From: Conexibacter sp. CPCC 206217
GTDB taxonomy: Bacteria; Actinomycetota; Thermoleophilia; Solirubrobacterales; Solirubrobacteraceae
DNA: 64,000 bases
Reading direction: 5' to 3'
Assembly: GCF_030646165.1 (NCBI RefSeq)
Contig: NZ_JAUTDO010000014.1
Coordinates: forward strand, 1-64,000
The notes under the pieces were generated by a model, which was given only the letters and a program-made list of their open reading frames with translations, was not told where the DNA came from and searched no databases. Both the position numbers and the translations under genes were made by a program. Below, in pieces: positions 53,219 through 64,000 of the stretch. Each line of letters opens with the position of its first letter. The first letter of the stretch is position 1.

Positions 53219-54336
53219 CCCTCCCGCCTCGTCCGATCCGCGACGATCCGCACGTCGATGCCCGGCAGCGCGGCCAGCAGCCGGCTCGGCAGCGACGGGC
53301 GCAGCAGGCGCTGCAGCGCGTTGCGATGGCTCGGCTCACCGATCAGCACGTAGGTCGTGCCGCGCTCGCGCGCGACGCGCCGGACGGTCGCGACGAGGTC
53401 GTCGCCCTGCTCGATCAGCAGGTGCGCGCCGAGCACGACCGCGAGACGGCGCAGCGCCTCGAGCTGCGCCGTCTCGCCGTCGCTCAGCTCGCGCGGCGGC
53501 TGCAGCCACAGCAGGTCGAGGTCGGTTCCGAGCCGCTGCGCCGAGCGCCACGCGCGCCGCACGACGCGCTGCGACGACGGCGTCGGCTCGACCAGCGCCA
53601 GCAGTCGCTCGCCGATCGCGGCCGGCGCCGCGTCGAGGAAGACGCGCTCCCCGTCGACCCGCCGCGCAGGCGCCGACGACGGCCCGAGGACGCGCCGGGC
53701 CTCGACCTCCTCGGCGACCTGTCGCAGCGCGACCTCGCGCAGCGCCGACAGGTTCTCCAGCGTGAAGAAGTTGTTCAGCGCCGACTCGACGCGCGCCGCC
53801 GGATAGACCTTGCCGGCCCGCAGCCGTTCGATCAGCGCCTCCGGCGTCAGGTCGATCAGGACCAGTTCGTCGGCGTCGCCGAGCACCTCGTCGGGCACCG
53901 TCTCGCGCACGCGCGTCGTCGTCAGCTCCGCGACCTGGTCGTTGAGCGACTCGAGGTGCTGCACGTTGACGGTCGAATAGACGTCGATTCCGGCGTGGAG
54001 CACGTCGGCGACGTCTCTGTAGCGCTTGTCGTGCTCCAGCCCCGGCGCGTTGGTGTGCGCGAGCTCGTCGATCAGGCACAGCTCCGGGGCGCGCGCGATG
54101 ATCGCCGACAGGTCCATCTCCTCCAGCAGCGCGCCGCGGTGCTCGACGCGCCGCCGCGGCACGACCTCGAGCCCGGCGGCCTGCGCGGTCGTCTCCGCGC
54201 GGCCATGGGGCTCGAGGTAGCCGATCGCGACGTCGCGACCGTTCTCGGCCTCGGCCTGCCCCTCCTGCAGCATCCGGTACGTCTTGCCGACGCCCGCCGC
54301 CATCCCGAGGAAGACCTTCAGCCGGCCGGGCATCAC
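53215..54336 (-). CDS. KdpD N-terminal sensor protein without kinase
   Basis: 373 residues: the KdpD sensor domain (about 1-210) with Walker [13 protein letters not shown], Walker B-like [14 protein letters not shown] and the [16 protein letters not shown] motif, followed by a USP domain (about 225-370, [39 protein letters not shown]). Full KdpD (about 900 aa) continues with four helices, GAF and histidine kinase; none is here. The protein ends naturally at a stop with the next gene overlapping, so it is not a chance frameshift. A separate kinase lies at 62927-64000. Probably a K+/nucleotide sensor. Confidence 0.9.
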
Positions 54337-56459
54337 GCCCCCAGCAGGTTGTGGACGATCAGGTCGACGAGCTTGATCCCGATGAAGGGCGCGATCAGGC
54401 CGCCGAGGCCGTAGACGAGCAGGTTGCGGCGCAGCAGCGCGGTCGCGCCGACCGGCCGGAACTTGACGCCGCGCAGCGCCAGCGGGACGAGCATCGGGAT
54501 CACGAGCGCGTTGAAGACGATCGCGGAGACGATCGCCGAGCGCGGCGTCCCGAGGTTCATGATGTTGAGCTTGTCCAGCGGCCCGGTGCCGTCGGCGTGG
54601 GTCGCGTAGGTGGCCGCGAAGATCGCCGGCAGGATCGCGAAGTACTTCGCGACGTCGTTGGCGATCGAGAACGTCGTCAGCGCGCCGCGCGTGATCAGCA
54701 GCTGCTTGCCGACCTCCACGATCTCGATCAGCTTCGTCGGGTTGGAGTCGAGGTCGACCATGTTGCCGGCCTCGCGCGCGGCCTGGGTGCCGGTGTTCAT
54801 CGCGACGCCGACGTCGGCCTGCGCGAGCGCAGGCGCGTCGTTGGTGCCGTCGCCGGTCATCGCGACCATCCGCCCGCCCGACTGCTGCTCCTTGATCAGC
54901 GCGAGCTTCGCCTCCGGCGTCGCCTCGGCGAGGAAGTCGTCGACGCCGGCCTCCTGCGCGATCTTCGCCGCCGTCAGCGGGTTGTCGCCGGTCACCATCA
55001 CCGTTCGGATGCCCATCGCGCGGAGGTGGTCGAACCGCTCCCTCATGCCCTCCTTGACGATGTCCTGCAGGTGCACGACGCCGAGCGCCTGGTTGTCGCG
55101 CGCGACCGCCAGCGGCGTGCCGCCGTCGCGCGCGATCTGGTCCATCGCCGCTCTCAGCTGCGGCGGCGTGGTGCCGCCCTCGGCCGCGATCCAGCGCTCG
55201 ATCGCGTCGCCGGCGCCCTTGCGCAGGCGCACGCCGTCGTAGTCGACGCCGGACATGCGCGTCTGCGCGGTGAACGGGACGAACTGCGCCTCGCTCTGCG
55301 TCAGCTCGCGAGCGCGGATGCCGAGCCTGTCCTTCGCCAGCACGACGATCGAGCGACCCTCGGGCGTCTCGTCGGCGAGCGAGGAGAGCTGCGCCGCCTC
55401 GGCCAGCTCACGCTCCGACACGCCGGGCATCGGCACGAACGCCGACGCCTGCCGGTTGCCGAGCGTGATCGTGCCGGTCTTGTCCAGCAGCAGCACGTCG
55501 ACGTCGCCGGACGCCTCGACCGCGCGCCCGCTCAGCGCGAGCACGTTGCGGCGCACGAGCCGGTCCATGCCGGCGATGCCGATCGCGCTCAGCAGCGCGC
55601 CGATCGTGGTGGGGATCAACGCGACGAGCAGGGAGATCAGCGTCGCGAGCGAGGTCGCGGTGCCGGCGTAGTCGGCGAACGGACGCAGCGTCACCACGAC
55701 GACGAGGAAGATCAGCGTCAGGCCCGCGAGCAGGATCCCGAGCGCGATCTCGTTCGGCGTCTTGCGGCGCGACGCACCCTCGACCAAGGCGATCATGCGG
55801 TCGAGGAACGACTCGCCGGGCTTCTGCGTGACCTCGACGAGGAGCTCGTCGGAGAGGACGCGCGTGCCGCCGGTGACGGCGCTGCGGTCGCCGCCGGCCT
55901 CGCGGATCACCGGCGCGGACTCGCCCGTGATCGCCGACTCGTCGACGGAGGCGATCCCTCGCACGACGGTGCCGTCGCCCGGGATCACCTCGCCCGCGAC
56001 CACGACGACGACGTCGCCCGGCTGCAGCTCGCCGGCGGCCTTCGTGCCGCCGTCGCGCAGTCTCGCGAGCGTCTCGCTGCGCATCGCGCGCAGCGACGCC
56101 GCCTGCGCGCGGCCGCGGCCCTCCGCGATCGCCTCCGCGAAGTTGCCGAAGACGACCGTCAGCCACAGCCAGCCGCTGACGGTGAACGTGTACCAGGCGG
56201 GATCGCTGCCGGCGCCGGCGATCGAACCGCCGAACGCCTGCACGATCCAGACGATCGTCGTCAGCAAGGCGCCGACCTCGACGACGAACATGACCGGGTT
56301 GCGCACCATCGCGCGCGGGTTCAGCTTGCGCAGCGAGTCGAGCAGGGCGGTGCGCAGGATCGCCGGTTCCAGCAGCGATCTGGTCGGCCGCCCCGAACCG
56401 TCGTGCCCGCGCGGGACGCCCGCGGAGGGCGGCGGGGTCTGGTCGGCAACGGCGGTCAT
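54333..56459 (-). CDS. kdpB: Potassium-transporting ATPase subunit B
   Basis: 708-residue P-type ATPase subunit that hydrolyses ATP for high-affinity K+ uptake. The phosphorylated Asp is in [16 protein letters not shown] (as ITGESAPV), [18 protein letters not shown] and the KdpB-type [11 protein letters not shown] are intact. Membrane helices occur in the expected places. ATG overlaps kdpC by four bases and its own stop overlaps the KdpD-like start. Here kdpB follows kdpC, against the usual A-B-C order. Confidence 0.97.
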
Positions 56460-57040
56460 CGGGCGGTCTCCTTGTCGAGCGCGAGGTTGAGTTGCAGGAC
56501 GTTCACGCCGGGCTCGCCGAAGAGGCCGAGGCTGCGGTCGTCCGTGTTCTGGTCGATCAGCTGGTCGACGCGGTCGATCGCGAGGCCGCGGACGGCGGCG
56601 ACGCGATGCGCCTGGATCCGCGCGTTGGCGGGCGTGATCTGCGGATCGACGCCGGAGGCCGACGTCTGGACCGCGTCCGGCGGGATCTGCGCGCGCGTCA
56701 GCGTTCTGTCGTATCCGCCTTCGGTCTTCAGGTACCGCTTCGCGGCCTTCGCGATCGTGTCCCTGGTGTCTGCGCCGTTGGGTCCCGCGTTGGAGAAGAA
56801 CGTCGCGGAGGGGTTGTAGTCGCTCTGCGACGGGCGACTGTGGAAGTACTGGGGTCTGTTGAAGCTCTGCCCCAGCAGGCGCGAGCCGACGACTCTGCCG
56901 TCGCGCTTGACCTGGCTGCCGTTGGCGGCGTCGTTGAACGCGACCTGGCTGACGCCGGTGACCACGAGCGGATAGAGCAGACCGAGCACGAGCGTCAGCA
57001 CGATCAGGCCGACGACGGTGGCTGTGAGGTCCTTCTTCAT
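56456..57040 (-). CDS. kdpC: Potassium-transporting ATPase subunit C
   Basis: 194 residues. One N-terminal helix ([23 protein letters not shown]) and a periplasmic-side domain with [34 protein letters not shown] and [17 protein letters not shown], the standard KdpC segments. It sits between kdpA (one-base overlap) and kdpB (four-base overlap). Confidence 0.96.
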
Positions 57041-58770
57041 CAGAACATCCGATCCGTGAGGCCCTGCACGACCGGGCCGAGCAGGAGGGCTGGGACGAAG
57101 GTGAGGAGCGCGACGAGCAGGATCGTGCCGACCGTCAGCACACCGAACGTCGGCGTGTCGGTGCGCATCGTGCCGGGGCCCGGGGGCGAGGTCTTGCGCC
57201 CGGCGAGCGCCCCGCCGATCGCCAGCACCGCGACGAGCGGCAGGAAGCGGCCGATCAACATCGCACCGCCGCCGAGCACGTCGGCGAAGGTGAAGCCGAA
57301 GGAGCCCGCGTTGCCCGGTGCGTTGGGCTGGATGAAGCCGGTGTAGCCGGCGAACGCGGAGCCGTTGTTGTTCGTCTGCGAGGTGTAGGCGTAGAGCGTC
57401 TCGGAGAAGCCCTGCGGCCCGCCGTTGTAGATCGATCTCAGGCCGTACTTGCTCGCGATCGCGAACGCGGTCGCGACGAGCACGAACAGCGGTACGGCAA
57501 GCGTGCCGACCATCGTCAGCTTCACCTCCCGCGCGCCGATCTTCTTGCCGAGGTACTCAGGCGTGCGGCCGACCATCAGGCCCGCGATGAAGACCGCGAG
57601 GATGATGAACATCAGCATCGAGGTGAGCCCCGAGCCGACGCCGCCGAAGATCACCTCGCCGGTCATCATGTTCGCCATCGGCAGCGCGCCGCCGATGCCG
57701 GTGAGCGACTCCATCGCCGCGTTGACCGCGCCGCACGAGGCGACCGTCGTGACGACCGCGAAGAGCGAGCTGGAGCCGATCCCGAAGCGTGTCTCCTTGC
57801 CCTCGAAGTTGCCGCCGTGGATGCCGGCGAGATGCTGCGCGGGCGTGCCGTGCGACTCCGCCGCGTACACGATCGCAACCGCGATCGCGAAGAAGGTGAA
57901 CATCGCGCCGTAGACCATCCAACCCTGGCGGCGGTTGCCGACCATGCGGCCGAACGTCGCGGTGAGACCGGCGGGGATCACCAGGATCGCCAGCATCGAG
58001 ACGACGTTGGTGAGGCCGCTGGCGTTCTCGAACGGCATCGCTGAATTGACGTTGAAGAAACCGCCGCCGTTGGTGCCCAGCAGCTTGATCGCCTCCTGCG
58101 AGGCGACCGGGCCGAGCGTGATCAGCTGTCTGACCCCTTCCAGACTGGTGAACGCCTGCGCGGGTGACAGTGACTGCACGAGCCCCTGCGAGACGAAGAA
58201 CAGCGCCAACACGAAGGCGAACGGCAGCAGCAGGTACAGCAGCGTGCGGGTGAGGTCGCTCCAGAAGTTGCCGAGCGTCTTCAGGCTGCGCGCGGAGAAG
58301 CCGCGGATGACCGCGATCAGGACCGCGATGCCGACCGCGGCGGAGAGGAAGTTCTGCACCGCCAGGCCGGCCATCTGGCTGAAGTTCGACATCGTCGTCT
58401 CACCGGCGTAGTACTGCCAGTTGGTGTTGGAGACGAACGACGAGGCGTTGTTGAAGGTGACGTCGGCGGGCGCGCCGCCGAAGCCGGCGGGGTTGAACGG
58501 CAGCGATCCCTGCAGGCGCAGGATCGCGTAGAGCAACAACCACGACCCGAGGCTGAAGATCAGAACTGAACGCGCGTAGCCCTTCCAGTCCTGCTCCTGC
58601 TCGGGGTCGATGCGGATGGTCTTGTAGAAGCCGCGCTCGATCGGGCCGAGCACGCGCGGGAAGATCGGCGCGCCGCTGTAGATGCGGTGCATGTAGGCGC
58701 CGACGAGGGGCGTCACCGCGGTCAGCGCCGCGATGAAGACGAGGATCTGGATCCAGCCCTGGACGGTCAT
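57040..58770 (-). CDS. kdpA: Potassium-transporting ATPase subunit A
   Basis: 576 residues, about ten helices. K+-selectivity loops are visible as [56 protein letters not shown] and [15 protein letters not shown]; the inner channel helix [16 protein letters not shown] is also present. It is the translocating subunit. Starts three bases after kdpF. Confidence 0.97.
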
Positions 58771-58773
58771 GTC

Positions 58774-58863
58774 TCAGAGCCGCTCCCCGCGCAGCAGCGC
58801 GTAGGAGAGGTAGAAGAAGACGGCGATCGAGACGAACAGCCCGATCGCGTTGCCGAGGCTCAT
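58774..58863 (-). CDS. kdpF: KdpF small subunit
   Basis: 29-residue hydrophobic peptide MSLGNAIGLFVSIAVFFYL followed by SYALLRGERL. Single helix, and the pattern YALLR near the end is typical of KdpF, which stabilises the Kdp complex. Its ATG overlaps the stop of the preceding micro-ORF by four bases and it lies directly before kdpA. Confidence 0.88.
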   Translation of the reverse strand: MSLGNAIGLFVSIAVFFYLSYALLRGERL

Positions 58864-58940
58864 ATCCGTTCGATTCCTTCGATGAGTGCGAGCATCGCGG
58901 CGAAGAACACGACCGCGAGCGCGATGACGAGGAGGTCCAT
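58860..58940 (-). CDS. Micro-protein upstream of kdpF
   Basis: 26 residues, MDLLVIALAVVFFAAMLAL then IEGIERI: one helix plus a short charged tail. ATGA overlap with kdpF and the protein-like pattern support a real gene, first of the operon. Similar one-helix peptides precede kdpF in other genomes, as far as I recall. It may be a second small Kdp subunit. Confidence 0.65.
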   Translation of the reverse strand: MDLLVIALAVVFFAAMLALIEGIERI

Positions 58941-58975
58941 GCAGACCACTGTGCGACCGCGGCCGCCCAGCCCCG

Positions 58976-59005
58976 ATCAAGATTCAGCGAGGGCGCATCA
59001 AGATT
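58976..59005 (-). promoter_or_regulatory. Direct repeat upstream of the kdp operon
   Basis: AATCTTGAT (minus strand) occurs twice, at 58976-58984 and 58997-59005, exactly 21 bases apart (two helical turns), 36 bases before the first kdp start. A TTGACG -35-like box lies at 59007-59012. OmpR/KdpE-type regulators bind tandem direct repeats, so this is a candidate KdpE site; the assignment is inference. Confidence 0.5.
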
Positions 59006-59084
59006 TCGTCAAGGGGTTTGAGAGGGCTGCGGCTGAGGCGGTGCGAGCCGCCGTGCAGCGAGCGGCGGCCGCGGGTGGGCGGCG

Positions 59085-60719
59085 TCAGCGAGCGACGCGG
59101 ACGATCCGAGCGCGGCCCGGCGAGCCGCCGGCGGCGGGGCGCAACAGCGTGACGAAGGCGGCGTGGCGCGCGAGCGCCGTGCTCCAGAGCACCGTCTGCG
59201 TGCGGTGCGGCGTGCCGGGTGGGCAGGCGCCGGGCTCGCTGCCGTGGTTGGTGTGGTGATGGTCGTGCCCCTCGTCGCGGCGCGCCGTCGAGCCGATCCA
59301 CAGCAGTGTGCGGGTGGCGCTGCCGGGCCGTCGCAGCAGCAGCCGCTGATCGCACGCGCGCGCCTGCGCGTAGAGAAGCGCGTCGCCGTTGAGGCTCGGC
59401 TGCGACAGCTCGGTGCGACGCGAACGCAACACCGTGCGCGACCGCCCGCGCACGAGATCCCGCACGACGATCGAGCTCCCGCGCGCGGTCGAGACCGCGT
59501 AGGTGAGGCGGTCGCCGGCGAGCGCGGGGCGGCCGAGGGTCGCTCCGCGCCGGGTGGCGACGATTGTCGGCGGGGCGAGGCGGGCGCTCGCAGCGGCGGC
59601 CGGGTGCGCCGAACCGCGGCCGGTCGTGGCAGTCGCCGCGTGGGCGCTCCGCGCGAGCGACCGCGCGCGCAGCTCGTCGCCGCCGTCGCGCGTCGTGCGC
59701 CAGGCGACCCAGCGGCGCGAGACGGCCAGCCCGGTGACGCGCGCGGCGGGGACGCGCGCGATCTCGCGCACGGGCGCGTGAAGCGTCCTGACGACGATCG
59801 CATCGCCGCGCACCAATGCCAGCTTCGCCCCGCCGATCGCCAGCTGCGGCGTGAGCAGTCGCGACGGCGGCGACTCGGGCGTCTGCAGCATCCCGCTCCT
59901 CCCGCCGACCTGTCGCCACGCGACGGCACCACCGCTCTGCGACGGATCGGTGGCGTCGCGGGCGACGAGCGTCGCATCAGCCGATGCGGCCGCGGGTCCC
60001 AGCAGGAGCGCGAGTGCGGCGGCTGCGAGCAGGACGGCATCGGCGCGGCGCAGGCGTCGCAACAGGCGCGGCTCGTTCGCCATCCGCTCGGCCAGGCGGA
60101 TGCCGAGCGTGTCGAAGCGCGGAGCCATCGCGACGACCGGCAGTGCGCGGCCGACGCCGAACGCGAGCCCGATCGCGACGCCGCTCGCCGGGTCGCCGAG
60201 CGCGACCGAGATTCCCGCCAGCGCCCAGACGGCGAACACGAGCACGAAGGTCGTGAAGCCGAGCCCGAGCAGGACGCCGTAGAGCGCCGCCGCGAGCGGC
60301 AGCGGCAGCGTCCGCCGCCAGCGCTCCGGCACCTGCCGGCGGATCTGCGGCGCGACGCGAACGCCGAACGCGTCCGCGAGCGCCGCGGCAAGCGCGACGA
60401 TCGCTGCGACGACGAGCGCGATGCTCTGGCCTCTGCCGCCCGTGCCGCTCCCGGCGTGGCCGATCGCCGCGGACGTGCCGCTCCCGCCCGCGCCAAGCGC
60501 CGCGCCGAGCACGCTCAGCAGCCCGAACGTGAGCGCGCCGCCGAGCAGCGCTCCGAGCGCGAAGGTCGTGCAGCTCGTGCGGACCAGCCGGCGGCGCTCG
60601 GCCCCCTCCCGGCCGGCCGCGCCGGCGAGCGTCTCGACCATCGAGAACCCGCACGGGGACCAGGCGCCGGTGACGCCGGCCGTGAACGCCGTCACGGCCA
60701 GCAGCGCTGCCGTCAGCAC
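59085..60719 (-). CDS. MauF/CcdA-like membrane protein fused to a beta-propeller-like domain
   Basis: 544 residues from a GTG preceded by GGAGG. N-terminal half (to about 250): six or so helices with GAWSPCGFSMVETL at residues 18-31, resembling MauF/CcdA/DsbD-type proteins that move reducing power across the membrane. C-terminal half (250-544) is extracytoplasmic and contains repeated beta blades (GRPALAGDRLTYAVS, LSQPSLNGDALLYAQ) like TolB/MauB-type propellers, with a His cluster HDHHHTNH at about 485-492. Start overlaps the stop of the MauA-like gene by 7 bases. Third gene of the Mau-like operon. Confidence 0.72.
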   Translation of the reverse strand: MLTAALLAVTAFTAGVTGAWSPCGFSMVETLAGAAGREGAERRRLVRTSCTTFALGALLGGALTFGLLSVLGAALGAGGSGTSAAIGHAGSGTGGRGQSIALVVAAIVALAAALADAFGVRVAPQIRRQVPERWRRTLPLPLAAALYGVLLGLGFTTFVLVFAVWALAGISVALGDPASGVAIGLAFGVGRALPVVAMAPRFDTLGIRLAERMANEPRLLRRLRRADAVLLAAAALALLLGPAAASADATLVARDATDPSQSGGAVAWRQVGGRSGMLQTPESPPSRLLTPQLAIGGAKLALVRGDAIVVRTLHAPVREIARVPAARVTGLAVSRRWVAWRTTRDGGDELRARSLARSAHAATATTGRGSAHPAAAASARLAPPTIVATRRGATLGRPALAGDRLTYAVSTARGSSIVVRDLVRGRSRTVLRSRRTELSQPSLNGDALLYAQARACDQRLLLRRPGSATRTLLWIGSTARRDEGHDHHHTNHGSEPGACPPGTPHRTQTVLWSTALARHAAFVTLLRPAAGGSPGRARIVRVAR

Positions 60720-61294
60720 GGGACCTCCGTCTGGAAGTACATGACGCAGAAGACCTTGCGATCGCCGTAGCAGTAGCCCGTGAGGGCGGCGTCGCCGTTG
60801 ATGCGGGTGGGATGCGCCGCACAGCAGTCCATCAGGCGCCGCACCTTGCCGCCGCAACAGCGATACCAGGAGCCATCGATCTGTGTGGGTATCCCATATC
60901 GGTCGGGGATGCTGTCCTGGCAGACGCGACTGCGCGGGGCTGGCGGGAGCGGACGACCGTCAGGGTCGCGCAGGCGCCGGCCGCGCCCGTCAACCGGGTT
61001 GCCGCCGCGATCGACCGGCCGCCCCAGGTCGTCGATCGGTCTGCCGTCGCCGGCGCGCAGCGGGAAGCCGCGCAGGTCGACCCGCGGCAGCCCGGTCGGG
61101 TGCGGACACGAGGCGGTCGTGTATGTGTGCCCGCAGAAGTGGAACGCCTCGGCGTCCTCGGTCCCCGCCGCCAGCGTCGCTCCGCCACCCGCGGTCGCCG
61201 CGAGCAGCCAGGCACCGGTTCGCGCGAGAAACCCGCGCCGCGAGGTCCCATCGGCAAGACGGTCGCTCAGCCGAGACCGCCCGCGCTCAGACAT
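60713..61294 (-). CDS. Methylamine-dehydrogenase-light-chain-like Cys-rich Tat protein
   Basis: 193 residues. Twin-Arg signal (SRRGFLARTG at 18-27, hydrophobic core to about 45) predicts Tat export of a folded protein. The mature part has ten Cys (54, 63, 125, 146, 147, 157, 158, 175, 183, 193), enough for five disulfides. SW143YRCC, MDCC157-158 and GYCYG (174-177) align by eye with the MauA sites around Trp57, the double Cys, and Trp108. Trp57 is kept (W143) but Trp108 is Tyr174, and no other Trp remains in the mature part. ATG overlaps the previous stop by 8 bases. Enzyme activity uncertain. Confidence 0.72.
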   Translation of the reverse strand: MSERGRSRLSDRLADGTSRRGFLARTGAWLLAATAGGGATLAAGTEDAEAFHFCGHTYTTASCPHPTGLPRVDLRGFPLRAGDGRPIDDLGRPVDRGGNPVDGRGRRLRDPDGRPLPPAPRSRVCQDSIPDRYGIPTQIDGSWYRCCGGKVRRLMDCCAAHPTRINGDAALTGYCYGDRKVFCVMYFQTEVPC

Positions 61295-62180
61295 GGAACG
61301 CCTCCAACAGCTCGCGTTCGCGCGCAGCGGCCGTCGCGACGAGCGATTCGAGCTGGCGCAGCGCGTTGAACGTGCCCTGCGCGAGGACGCTGCCGTCGAG
61401 GCCGAGGACGACCGCATAGGGGCTGCCGGGGATCTCCAGCGCGCGCCATGCGGCGGCCTCCTCGTACTCGTCGAACGTGAGCACGGTCAGCAGCGGGTCG
61501 TTGGCCAGCAGCGCGACCGAGGGCGCGAGCGCCTGGCACATCGAGCAGCCCGCGGACGTGAAGACCGCGACCGCGAAGCGCGCCCGCTCACCTGGTGCGA
61601 AGCGCTCGATCAACGCGACGCGCACGCCCAGCGGCGGCCCCTCGCCGGGGATCTCGAGCGCCGGCTGCGGGCCCAGCGCCAGCCGCAGCTCGCCGACCTC
61701 ACGGGCGAGTGCCACCACGAGCGCGCCCAGCGCCAGGAGCCCCGCGAGCGCGACACCGAGGCCGATCGCGAGCCAACCGGTCGCGGCCGGGTCGACCGCG
61801 GGCACGAACGGGAGCGTCACGAACGCGAGCGCCAGCAGCGCGGCGCGTGCGACGGCGGCTCCGCTCACACGCGAGCGCGCCCCGAAGCAGCCGCACGGTT
61901 CGCCGCCGCGCCCGCTGCGCAACGCGCGCAGCAGCAGGATCGCGAAGCAGGCCATCAGCGCCGCGGCGCCCCACGCCGCGACCGCGCTGCCGAGCGCCAC
62001 GCCGACCGCGAGCGCCACCTCGGCGACGATCGCCGCGCCCCACACGACCACCCGCGTCCGCGGCGCATCCAGCCCGTACGTCGCAAGCGCCGCCTGCGCC
62101 GCGGTCGGCCGCACGAGCTTGGCGCCCGCACTCGCGAGCAGGATCAGCGCCAGCAGCGCCTCGGCGACCGCGGTCAACAT
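61287..62180 (-). CDS. MauE-thioredoxin (MauE/MauD) fusion protein
   Basis: 297 residues. The first ~160 have five helices and the MauE hallmark CGCFG at residues 96-100; the C-terminal ~110 form an extracytoplasmic thioredoxin-like domain with a redox pair CSMC at 212-215 (VFTSAGCSMC). In methylamine utilisation MauE and MauD are separate and put disulfides into the light chain; here they are one protein. First gene of the Mau-like operon, overlapping the Cys-rich protein gene, which is its likely client. Confidence 0.82.
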   Translation of the reverse strand: MLTAVAEALLALILLASAGAKLVRPTAAQAALATYGLDAPRTRVVVWGAAIVAEVALAVGVALGSAVAAWGAAALMACFAILLLRALRSGRGGEPCGCFGARSRVSGAAVARAALLALAFVTLPFVPAVDPAATGWLAIGLGVALAGLLALGALVVALAREVGELRLALGPQPALEIPGEGPPLGVRVALIERFAPGERARFAVAVFTSAGCSMCQALAPSVALLANDPLLTVLTFDEYEEAAAWRALEIPGSPYAVVLGLDGSVLAQGTFNALRQLESLVATAAARERELLEAFHV

Positions 62181-62252
62181 TGCGGGCTATCACAGCAGCG
62201 CCGACCCGCCGCCGCAACTGGGTGCGGCGCGAAAGCGCTCCCCGCCGCCCGC

Positions 62253-62930
62253 TCACCCCGCGAAGCGGTACCCGACGCCCGGATCGGTGCGGATGTGGCG
62301 GGGGCCGTCGCCGGCCGGCTCGATCTTGTGGCGCAGGTTGGCGATGTGGGTGCGCAGCGTGCGGATGTCGTCGCCGTAGGCCGGACCCCACACCTCGGTC
62401 AGCAGCGCGCGGTGCGTCAGCAGCCGGCCGCGGTTGCGTGCGAGCACGCGCAGCAGGTCGTATTCGATCGGCGTCAGGTGAACCTCCTCGCCGTCGCGCC
62501 GCACGACGCGGCGCGCCAGGTCCAGCTCCAGGCCGTCGACGGAGATCGTCGGCTCGTCGGCGTTGCGCCCGGCGCGGCGCAGGGCGGCGCCGAGCCGCGC
62601 GACCAGCTCGCGCGCGCCGAACGGCTTCGTCACGTAGTCGTCGGCGCCGGCCTCCAGCGCGCGCACCTTCTGCTCCTCCTCGCCGATCGCCGACAGCACG
62701 AGGATCGGCATCTCGCTCCACGCGCGCAGCTGGCGCGTCACCTCGATCCCGTCGCCGTCGGGCAGCACGAGGTCGACGACCGCCGCGTCCGGCGGTCGCG
62801 TCGCGGCGGCGTCGAGCGCCTCCTCGGCGGTCGCGACCGTGATCGGCTCGTAGCCCGCGTCGCGCAGGATCACGCGCAGCGCACGCAGGATCTGCAGCTC
62901 GTCGTCGACGACGAGGATCCGCCCGCTCAC
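62253..62930 (-). CDS. KdpE-like response regulator
   Basis: 225 residues. Receiver domain (phosphoacceptor Asp in AAVVDLVLPDGDG, acidic pair VVDDE, conserved Lys in DYVTKPF) and an OmpR/PhoB winged-helix domain (LTPIEYDLLRVLARNRGRLLTHRALLTEVWG). GTG overlaps the kinase stop (GTGA). Closest in look to KdpE. With the kinase it forms a two-component pair, 72 bases upstream of the Mau-like operon and upstream of the kdp operon, either of which it could control. Confidence 0.9.
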   Translation of the reverse strand: MSGRILVVDDELQILRALRVILRDAGYEPITVATAEEALDAAATRPPDAAVVDLVLPDGDGIEVTRQLRAWSEMPILVLSAIGEEEQKVRALEAGADDYVTKPFGARELVARLGAALRRAGRNADEPTISVDGLELDLARRVVRRDGEEVHLTPIEYDLLRVLARNRGRLLTHRALLTEVWGPAYGDDIRTLRTHIANLRHKIEPAGDGPRHIRTDPGVGYRFAG

Positions 62931-64000
62931 CGCGGCCGCCCTGCCGATATCGGCTCGGCCGGAGCCGTCGCCGGCCCCGGCTCGCCGCCGGCCGGCTCGG
63001 TCTCCAGCGGCAGCTCGACCACGAACGTCGTCCCCTGCCCCGGCAGCGACTCCGCCCACACCCGCCCGCCGTTGGCCTCCACGAAGCCGCGTACGACCGC
63101 GAGGCCCAGGCCGGAGCCGATGTGCCCGTCGACGCGTGGACCAGTCCCGCCCACCCCGCGGTAGAACGGCTCGAAGATCCGCTCCAGCTCGGCGCCGGGA
63201 ATCCCGGGACCGCGGTCGACGATCCGGATCAGCATGCGGTGGCCGACGACGCGGGCGCGCACCGCGACCGGATGCTCGCCGCCGTGGCGGGCCGCGTTCT
63301 CCAGCAGGTTGGCGAAGGCGCGCTCCAACTGCGCAGCGTCGGCGCGCACGAGCGGCAGCTCGCGGTCGATCGCGATGTTGAAGCCGGCCGCGTGCGGCGT
63401 CTCGTCGATCGCCACGCGCAGGACCTCGTCGATCGAGCACCACTCGGGCCGCGGGTCGGCCGCGCCGCCCTGCAGGCGCGAGAGGTCGAGCAGCTTGTCG
63501 ACCAGGCGCGAGAGCCGCTGCGCCTCGCCCGTGACCGCCGCCGCCAGCTCCTCGCGGTCGGCCTCGGTCAGCGTCGAGGACTGCAGCGCCTCGCCGGCCG
63601 TCGCGATCGCGGTCAGCGGCGAGCGCAGGTCGTGCGAGACGGCCCGCAGCAGCGCGGTCTTGATGTCGTCGCTGCGTCGCAGCGCCTGGTTCTCGACGAG
63701 GTCGCGCTGCAGCGCCTCGCGCTGCAGCGCGACGCCGAGGATCGCCTCCAGCGCCGGAACGACCCGCTCGCGCAGCCGCTGCTGCGCGTCGGGCGGCGGC
63801 GCCACGGCCAGCCGCAGCGTCCCGATCCGCCGCGCGCGCTGGTGCAGCGGGACGTCGAGGTCGAGCAGCGGCGCTTTCGCAACCGCTGCGGTACCGAAGG
63901 TGTCGGTGCTCGGACCTGCCGCGGGAGCGAGCACCGGCGGCTTCTCCCCCAGCTCGATCGTCACGCCCGGCGCGAGGTCGAGCGCGTGCGCGAGCCGCTG
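62927..64000 (-). CDS. KdpD-type histidine kinase (5' end outside window)
   Basis: At least 357 residues, open to the window edge (the reading frame continues with no stop up to 64000). The visible part begins in a GAF-like region (LRLAVAPPPDAQQRLRERVVPALEAILGVALQREAL), then HisKA with the phosphorylated His in AVSHDLRSPLTAIA, and an HATPase domain (FANLLENAARHG, GPGIPGAELERIFEPFYRG, GSGLGLAVVRGFVEANGGRVWAES). This matches the kinase half of KdpD, the part that the 53215 gene lacks. The missing N-terminus would show whether membrane helices or a second sensor domain are present. Confidence 0.9.
   Translation of the reverse strand, partial: QRLAHALDLAPGVTIELGEKPPVLAPAAGPSTDTFGTAAVAKAPLLDLDVPLHQRARRIGTLRLAVAPPPDAQQRLRERVVPALEAILGVALQREALQRDLVENQALRRSDDIKTALLRAVSHDLRSPLTAIATAGEALQSSTLTEADREELAAAVTGEAQRLSRLVDKLLDLSRLQGGAADPRPEWCSIDEVLRVAIDETPHAAGFNIAIDRELPLVRADAAQLERAFANLLENAARHGGEHPVAVRARVVGHRMLIRIVDRGPGIPGAELERIFEPFYRGVGGTGPRVDGHIGSGLGLAVVRGFVEANGGRVWAESLPGQGTTFVVELPLETEPAGGEPGPATAPAEPISAGRPR

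What the first reader, a model, noticed from the sequence alone, without database searches (positions are those of the whole stretch)
59085..62180. Mau-like three-gene operon without methylamine dehydrogenase heavy chain
Three overlapping genes encode a MauE-thioredoxin fusion, a Tat-exported Cys-rich protein resembling the methylamine dehydrogenase light chain, and a MauF/CcdA-like protein fused to a beta-propeller-like domain. In known systems the light chain works with MauB (a propeller) and MauG. Neither is in the operon as a separate gene, but the propeller could substitute for MauB. This could be a new, membrane-tethered quinone-like or disulfide-rich redox system, or a non-catalytic structural use of the Mau fold. 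Seen: gene order, overlaps, motifs. Inferred: partnership.
Basis: partly seen in the sequence, partly recalled or inferred. Interest (0 to 1): 0.87.

Follow-up and report, generated by a model that had tools for sequence, protein, structure and literature searches.

The report
Mau-type maturation operon without its enzyme
A bacterium related to Conexibacter, and many of its relatives, keep helper genes like those that mature the small subunit of methylamine dehydrogenase, next to a secreted cysteine-rich protein that resembles that subunit only faintly and has one tryptophan where its cofactor needs two, so the helpers probably serve a different, still unknown secreted protein.

Summary
The three overlapping genes are real and lie exactly where stated. 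P1 (61287-62180) is a MauE-MauD(thioredoxin) fusion. P3 (59085-60719) is a MauF homologue with a repeat-rich, propeller-like tail. P2 (60713-61294) is a Tat-exported protein with ten cysteines in its mature part. P2 is widespread: 29 of 232 genomes of the order, 39 of 299 of a class sample, 27 of 396 of a phylum sample (samples overlap). Of 54 order/class loci, 50 hold all three genes; in five loci of one genus P1 and P2 are one frame. In two other families (20 loci) the set is MauE, MauD, P2 and MauF, without the tail. Mature parts of 73 P2 members match no light-chain profile, but for two separate models the two best-ranked solved folds were TTQ light chains, with low Z (3.1-3.7, tied with an unrelated chain). 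In 70 sequences Trp143, Asp156, Tyr174 and ten Cys never vary; Tyr174 seems to sit where the second TTQ Trp would be (inferred). MauB was found in 0 of 30 P2 genomes, a MauG-type peroxidase in 4 of 30. Best reading: a Mau light-chain maturation module kept for a non-TTQ, disulfide-rich, light-chain-like protein. 'The propeller replaces MauB' is not supported.

The parts
61287..62180 (-). P1: MauE-MauD(thioredoxin) fusion, 297 aa; proposed disulfide-forming membrane module
   Evidence: PF07291 MauE 61.6 bits; weak TIGR02661 MauD; orthologue L158 MauD 110.8 bits
61812..62177 (-). MauE membrane domain of P1 (residues 2-123)
   Evidence: Pfam stretch 2-123
61881..61895 (-). CGCFG motif (CxC) of the MauE domain, residues 96-100
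   Evidence: C-x-C-[FYW]-G found in 44 of 53 P1 frames
61536..61547 (-). CSMC (CxxC) motif of the thioredoxin/MauD domain, residues 212-215
   Evidence: CxxC found in 52 of 53 P1 frames
60713..61294 (-). P2: Cys-rich protein with a Tat-type signal, 193 aa, light-chain-like
   Evidence: fold searches
61199..61243 (-). twin-arginine signal core SRRGFLARTGAWLLA of P2 (residues 18-32)
   Evidence: both Arg invariant in 27 of 27
60821..60868 (-). W143-YRCC...D156-CC core of P2
   Evidence: W, R, CC and DCC in 70 of 70 sequences
60770..60778 (-). G173-Y174-C175 of P2; Tyr at the place proposed for the second TTQ Trp
   Evidence: 70 of 70; equivalence inferred
59085..60719 (-). P3: MauF homologue with C-terminal repeat (propeller-like) domain, 544 aa, GTG start
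   Evidence: hhalign to MauF Prob 98.9 E 1.5e-17; repeats
60642..60662 (-). WSPCGFS motif shared with MauF (WSPCGYS)
59088..59954 (-). C-terminal repeat domain of P3 (residues 256-544), propeller-like by inference
   Evidence: self-alignment with a shift of about 33 columns, E 8.9e-6

Best explanation
This is the light-chain maturation part of a mau cluster (MauE + MauD + MauF), kept and inherited together with a divergent light-chain-like substrate (P2), without the enzyme it normally serves. P2 leaves the cell by the Tat route. The CxxC of the MauD domain then forms or shuffles its disulfides (ten cysteines, at most five bonds), and electrons pass to the CxC of MauE and on to membrane quinone; P3/MauF holds or chaperones the substrate at the membrane. 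The product is a small, disulfide-locked extracytoplasmic protein that keeps an invariant Trp143/Asp156/Tyr174/Arg164-Asn166-Asp168 set but does not carry classical TTQ, because the mature part has one Trp and MauB and usually MauG are missing. Shown by tools: gene identities, conservation, fusions, no MauB profile hit. Inferred: export, electron path, docking, disulfide pattern, lack of TTQ. What P2 finally does is not known; the invariant residues suggest a specific redox or binding function rather than pure structure.
For: MauE over cut-off (separate orthologue 71.5 bits and MauF-fused orthologue 80.6 bits). MauD orthologue E 5.3e-32. MauF E 1.5e-17. All three genes in 50 of 54 order/class loci; P1 and P2 in one frame in 5 loci; CxxC in 52 of 53 and CxC in 44 of 53. 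Two further families hold P2 in 20 of 20 loci chosen for it, with MauD signal in 19 (one only partial), MauF in 18 and MauE in 16 of 20 by profile, in two other gene orders. Ten Cys, W, D, Y in 70 of 70. Two AlphaFold2 models, of the window protein and of its L158 orthologue (pLDDT 70.2 and 93.1), both rank the AADH and MADH light chains first and second of 999 and 998 chains aligned, spanning nearly the whole mature part. MauB 0 of 30, MauG type 4 of 30. PMC7794033 (passages) says mau proteins mature methylamine dehydrogenase, that MauE has been speculated to form disulfides of its beta subunit and that MauD's exact function is unclear (citing van der Palen 1997, not read).
Confidence: 0.68

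Rival explanations
1. P2 is an active quinoprotein with a new protein-derived cofactor: Trp143 is oxygenated and perhaps cross-linked to Tyr174 in place of the Trp-Trp pair of TTQ, made without MauG; electrons go to P3's tail or the membrane.
For: W143, D156 (in DCC, as in MADH) and Y174 invariant in 70 of 70. The order W..C, DCC, [WY]C, V.C, final C is shared with one Thermomicrobium roseum light chain and nearly so with the other; both keep two Trp at these places. MauE/D/F conserved. Fold rank.
Against: No MauG type in 26 of 30 genomes and no heavy chain. No electron acceptor or substrate pathway was identified; the flanking genes were clustered but mostly not annotated, so this was hardly tested. 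The W108-Y174 equivalence rests on a weak alignment. The T. roseum cofactor is unknown.
Confidence: 0.15
2. P2 is an unrelated Cys-rich secreted protein, and the Mau genes are a general disulfide kit hired for it.
For: No significant sequence kinship with MauA beyond the Tat signal. MauE (and in one case MauD) homologues in candidate peptide gene clusters of Streptomyces without other mau genes (PMC7794033, passages; the passage breaks off at precursors 'containing at least 8', which I take to be cysteines).
Against: MauE, MauD and MauF are all kept, and both models rank TTQ light chains first. T. roseum has Me-amine-dh_L proteins with similar helpers.
Confidence: 0.2
3. One reading: P3's propeller tail takes the place of MauB, forming a membrane-tethered light-chain/propeller enzyme. 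This can hold together with rival 1.
For: P3 tail is repeat-rich and is found in 44 of 54 order/class loci. The T. roseum locus has several ORFs that I take for propellers (PQQ_2/BamB similarity below cut-off in three of five, one of them fused to MauE). Two Solirubrobacter-type loci scanned carry, just upstream of P1, a protein with lactonase-propeller similarity.
Against: Tail of 234-289 aa in 19 sequences against 417 aa of the MauB precursor, no MauB similarity (E 0.019), absent in G216, G211 and all genes called in 20 loci of the two other families.
Confidence: 0.12

Closest known systems
mau cluster of Paracoccus denitrificans PD1222 (L123)
   Same: MauF, MauE, MauD and a Cys-rich small protein with a twin-arginine signal in one operon; WSPCG motif of MauF; DCC motif of the light chain
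   Different: The operon here has three genes only: no MauB, amicyanin, MauJ, MauG or NapG/NapH-like (mauM/N) gene in it (genome-wide only MauB and MauG were searched); E and D fused; F fused to a repeat domain; one Trp in the mature light-chain-like protein; ten instead of twelve Cys
Aromatic amine dehydrogenase light chain (PDB 2agy chain H)
   Different: 15-16% identity over the aligned residues; no Me-amine-dh_L profile match; no heavy chain
Thermomicrobium roseum plasmid locus NC_011961 (L124)
   Same: MauE, MauD-like and MauF-like genes with Cys-rich light chains that bear an RR signal and end in Cys; no MauG or MauB profile hit on that plasmid
   Different: Light chains match Me-amine-dh_L (36.2 and 42.5 bits) and keep both Trp; several propeller-like ORFs; MauE fused to one of them
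MauE/MauD-bearing candidate RiPP clusters of Streptomyces (PMC7794033, passages seen)
   Same: MauE (and in one family MauD) without other mau genes, beside a small predicted precursor
   Different: Substrates there are predicted peptide precursors; MauF and a light-chain-like protein are not mentioned in the passages seen

Membership tests
TTQ amine dehydrogenase light chain (PF02975 / TIGR02659) | Match to the curated light-chain profile | tested here: not met
   Window protein none; 0 of 73 members, mature part. L158 full length: TIGR02659 17.5 bits, E 0.0029 (cut-off 196.85), lost when the signal is removed
TTQ amine dehydrogenase light chain (PF02975 / TIGR02659) | Two Trp that form TTQ (W57 and W108 of mature MADH; numbers recalled) | tested here: not met
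   Only Trp143 in the mature window protein; 70 of 70 keep this W and have Tyr in GYC; equivalence of Tyr174 with W108 inferred
TTQ amine dehydrogenase light chain (PF02975 / TIGR02659) | Light-chain fold | tested here: inconclusive
TTQ amine dehydrogenase light chain (PF02975 / TIGR02659) | Twelve cysteines, six disulfides (count in the Paracoccus sequence; disulfides recalled) | tested here: not met
   Ten Cys in mature P2, invariant in 70 of 70; disulfides themselves not testable
mau cluster | MauE | tested here: met
   PF07291 61.6 bits against cut-off 27
mau cluster | MauD | tested here: inconclusive
   Homologous (110.8 bits in L158; 20.5 bits in the window) but under the equivalog cut-off of 188.6
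mau cluster | MauF | tested here: met
   hhalign Prob 98.9, E 1.5e-17; shared WSPCG[FY]S; homology, not proof of the same role
mau cluster | MauB heavy chain | tested here: not met
   PF06433 0 of 30 P2 genomes, own genome included (its 14 control genomes did not ring); control 5 of 6 records
mau cluster | MauG | tested here: not met
   PF03150 absent in G000; 4 of 30 P2 genomes have one, on another contig or 1.8 Mb from P2

The most novel reading that the evidence does not exclude
P2 carries a new protein-derived redox cofactor made from Trp143 and Tyr174 (a Trp-Tyr counterpart of tryptophan tryptophylquinone), matured by MauE/D/F without MauG, in a light-chain-like protein that works without a MauB partner.
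Probability: 0.12. Interest if true: 0.92.

Novelty: new variant of a known kind. Interest (0 to 1): 0.6.

Why it matters
MauD, MauE and MauF are known mainly as helpers of TTQ amine dehydrogenases, and what each does is still vague. Here they form a compact set (in one genus MauE, MauD and substrate are one frame) with a single conserved substrate and no heavy chain or, mostly, MauG. That separates light-chain folding from TTQ chemistry and makes the helpers' roles directly testable. The family is common in the phylum sample and its protein, with Trp, Asp and Tyr invariant in 70 of 70 sequences, has no assigned function. If the site is modified, it would be a new protein-derived cofactor.

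Tried and rejected
Profile comparison of full-length P2 with MauA gave E near 1e-7, but the match was the Tat signal only, so it was rejected as evidence. Mature parts: against MauA of Proteobacteria no better than shuffled columns (33 of 60 free, 35 of 60 with Cys fixed); against Thermomicrobium light chains 1 of 60 and 4 of 60; against both together 3 of 60 and 2 of 60. Kept as borderline. The TIGR02659 hit of L158 (E 0.0029) vanished on the mature part. Profile A1 against PDB sequences: four chance hits, none a light chain. The PF20173 zinc-finger hits of A7 members (14 of 73, best E 0.0019) were treated as Cys-rich chance and not pursued. P3 tail against MauB and against T. roseum propeller-like ORFs: not significant. 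Plasmid searches with P2 and with its L158 orthologue: none. PF02975 in the own genome: none (nothing rang in its controls); in 396 phylum genomes: none over cut-off, one partial hit with a stop at E 8e-4.

Rows dropped: L043, L052, L063 and L064 from the alignment (L043 and L052 because my script took a wrong stretch, L063 cut by a contig end, L064 partial); rows there were cut at CGH, which every kept row had. L043, L052 and L064 are back in A7, whose selection pattern itself demanded CGH, W.RCC and DCC and missed only L063. G113 was a chance hit (no P2 in L065), hence 29 of the 30 listed there. In one search, 27 of the 32 listed have E < 1e-20; the five weak ones were not counted. L050 was left out of the P3 alignments (stop in frame); L044, L045 and L051 were left out of A6 (start misread, no tail, shifted frame). 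L055 and L057 have identical P2. My gene calls come from a simple GC-bias script and can be wrong.
Full report
Observation. The three genes lie on the minus strand at 62180-61287 (P1), 61294-60713 (P2) and 60719-59085 (P3), overlapping by 8 and 7 bases. P1 has a MauE domain (PF07291, 61.6 bits) and a C-terminal thioredoxin-like part with CSMC. P2 has a twin-arginine motif and ten cysteines in its mature part, with one Trp there, W143. P3 starts with GTG. No Pfam or NCBIfam family passes its cut-off for P2 or P3.

MauF and MauD identity. A profile of the P3 membrane part aligns with MauF of Paracoccus and Indioceanicola at Prob 98.9, E 1.5e-17 over 190 columns, sharing WSPCG[FY]S and the R.QVP stretch. 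The MauD identity is weak in the window protein (TIGR02661, 20.5 bits), but in an orthologous operon (L158) MauD is a separate gene that matches TIGR02661 over nearly its full length with 110.8 bits, E 5.3e-32; this is below the equivalog cut-off of 188.6. MauE is separate there too (71.5 bits).

Distribution. P2 is present in 29 of 232 genomes of the order (one search lists 30; G113 proved to be a chance hit), 39 of 299 of a class sample and 27 of 396 of a phylum sample at E < 1e-20 (one search lists 32); the samples overlap. The named relatives are six loci: Solirubrobacter soli, S. phytolaccae, a Conexibacter sp., two Solirubrobacteraceae MAGs and an actinomycetotal MAG. G085, of the window's own genus label, has a contig of the same length (7,429 bases) as that Conexibacter record, so I take the window to be Conexibacter-like (inferred). 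Of 54 loci in order and class, P1 was found in 53, P3 in 51 and all three in 50; three of the four gaps are at contig ends, one (L053) is not. In L064 (G211) the P1 hit is a MauD-like gene only, in an operon like those of the other families below. In four loci of one genus (L052, L055, L057, L058) P3 lies 3.6 kb from P2; in the two I looked at (L052, L055) other genes lie between. In five loci of one genus P1 and P2 form one open frame, four of 447-460 aa and one cut by a contig end, that keeps the RR motif inside. In two more distant families (20 loci) P2 occurs with MauD-like (19 of 20, one partial), MauF-like (18 of 20) and MauE-like (16 of 20) parts by profile. In one family (13 loci) MauE is divergent in 10 and MauF is 195-199 aa; in the other (7 loci) MauF and MauE are one frame in 6 of 7 by profile. 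A protein of about 200 aa with a signal-like start usually follows MauE there: 16 members by clustering, 13 aligned. A profile of the P3 tail hits the P3 gene in 44 of the 54 order/class loci and none of the genes called in the 20 others; in G216 the gene after the tail-less MauF reads as an acyl-CoA dehydrogenase (my reading). So the core is MauE + MauD + MauF + P2; the tail is an addition common in the class.

The conserved site. In 70 sequences the ten Cys, W143, R145, D156, R164, N166, G167, D168, G173, Y174, V181 and H56 never vary. MADH has W57, D76-C-C and W108-C (numbers recalled; the motifs are seen). T. roseum light chains, which match Me-amine-dh_L (36.2 and 42.5 bits), have SSWYMCC or AWWAC, DCC, NWC and a final Cys; P2 has SWYRCC, DCC, GYC, VFC and a final Cys. 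The simplest equivalence is W143 = W57, D156 = D76, Y174 = W108. This is inferred, as residue pairs of the fold match were not available. On it, P2 cannot make TTQ, and MauG-type peroxidases are missing in 26 of 30 genomes (its control rings in E. coli and Methanosarcina). MauB is missing in 30 of 30 (no control rang there, but the family rings in 5 of 6 plasmid records fetched for their light chains).

T. roseum as a bridge. Its plasmid holds two Me-amine-dh_L proteins, four ORFs of about 390-460 aa that I take for propellers (PQQ_2 similarity below cut-off in two of the four), a similar domain fused to MauE, a MauD-like and a MauF-like gene. That plasmid has no PF06433 or PF03150 hit; the T. 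roseum chromosome was not searched. This shows similar helpers rearranged around light chains that keep both Trp.

Mechanism. Most likely P2 is exported by Tat, oxidised by the MauD CxxC (52 of 53) with MauE (CxC 44 of 53) as the membrane partner, and held by MauF. None of these steps is shown here. The only printed support seen is PMC7794033 (passages): mau proteins mature methylamine dehydrogenase, MauE has been speculated to form disulfides of its beta subunit, and MauD's function is unclear (citing van der Palen 1997, not read). The P3 tail (234-289 aa in 19 sequences) has internal repeats, so a small propeller is plausible, but it has no MauB signal. The odds given to the explanations are not exclusive: rivals 1 and 3 can hold with parts of the best one.

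Literature. Searches (open PMC library only; one search listed 20 of 531 and one search listed 15 of 30) listed no paper whose title or abstract start tells of a MauE/D/F operon with a light-chain-like protein in these bacteria; the nearest found is PMC7794033. Papers outside that library, or not listed, may exist.

Verdict. The propeller-for-MauB idea is not supported. Interest lies in a widespread, uncharacterised Mau-like module whose substrate has an invariant Trp/Asp/Tyr set.

Noticed in passing
window 54333-64000: The operon sits inside a kdp locus: histidine kinase 62927-64000 (runs off the window) and response regulator 62253-62930 upstream; KdpF-like peptide 58774-58863 (named from recall), KdpA 57040-58770, KdpC 56456-57040 and a P-type ATPase (KdpB-like) 54333-56459 downstream, in the order A-C-B.
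   Followed up: partly
L124 826-11349 (Thermomicrobium roseum plasmid NC_011961): Unusual mau-like locus: two light chains (one not in the gene table used), several propeller-like ORFs, such a domain fused to MauE, MauD- and MauF-like genes, and no MauB or MauG profile hit on the plasmid.
   Followed up: partly
L052 3175-5370, L055 7672-9879 and 9979-12150: Solirubrobacter-type loci carry large proteins with signal-like starts upstream of P1; the three scanned have the Cu-binding_MopE motif and two of them lactonase-propeller similarity; the cluster has members in seven loci.
   Followed up: partly
L158 3010-3645 and 12 similar: Conserved protein of about 200 aa with a signal-like start and a CxxxC near its end, next to MauE in two other families; no family found for the two scanned.
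   Followed up: partly
window 60923-61105 (P2 linker): The stretch of P2 between its second and third Cys is made of DxxGxPVD-type repeats and is shorter in the two more distant families.
   Followed up: no
L050 7174-8550; L051 4746-6410: P3 of L050 has an in-frame stop, and P3 of L051 seems frame-shifted at its start; both may be assembly errors.
   Followed up: no
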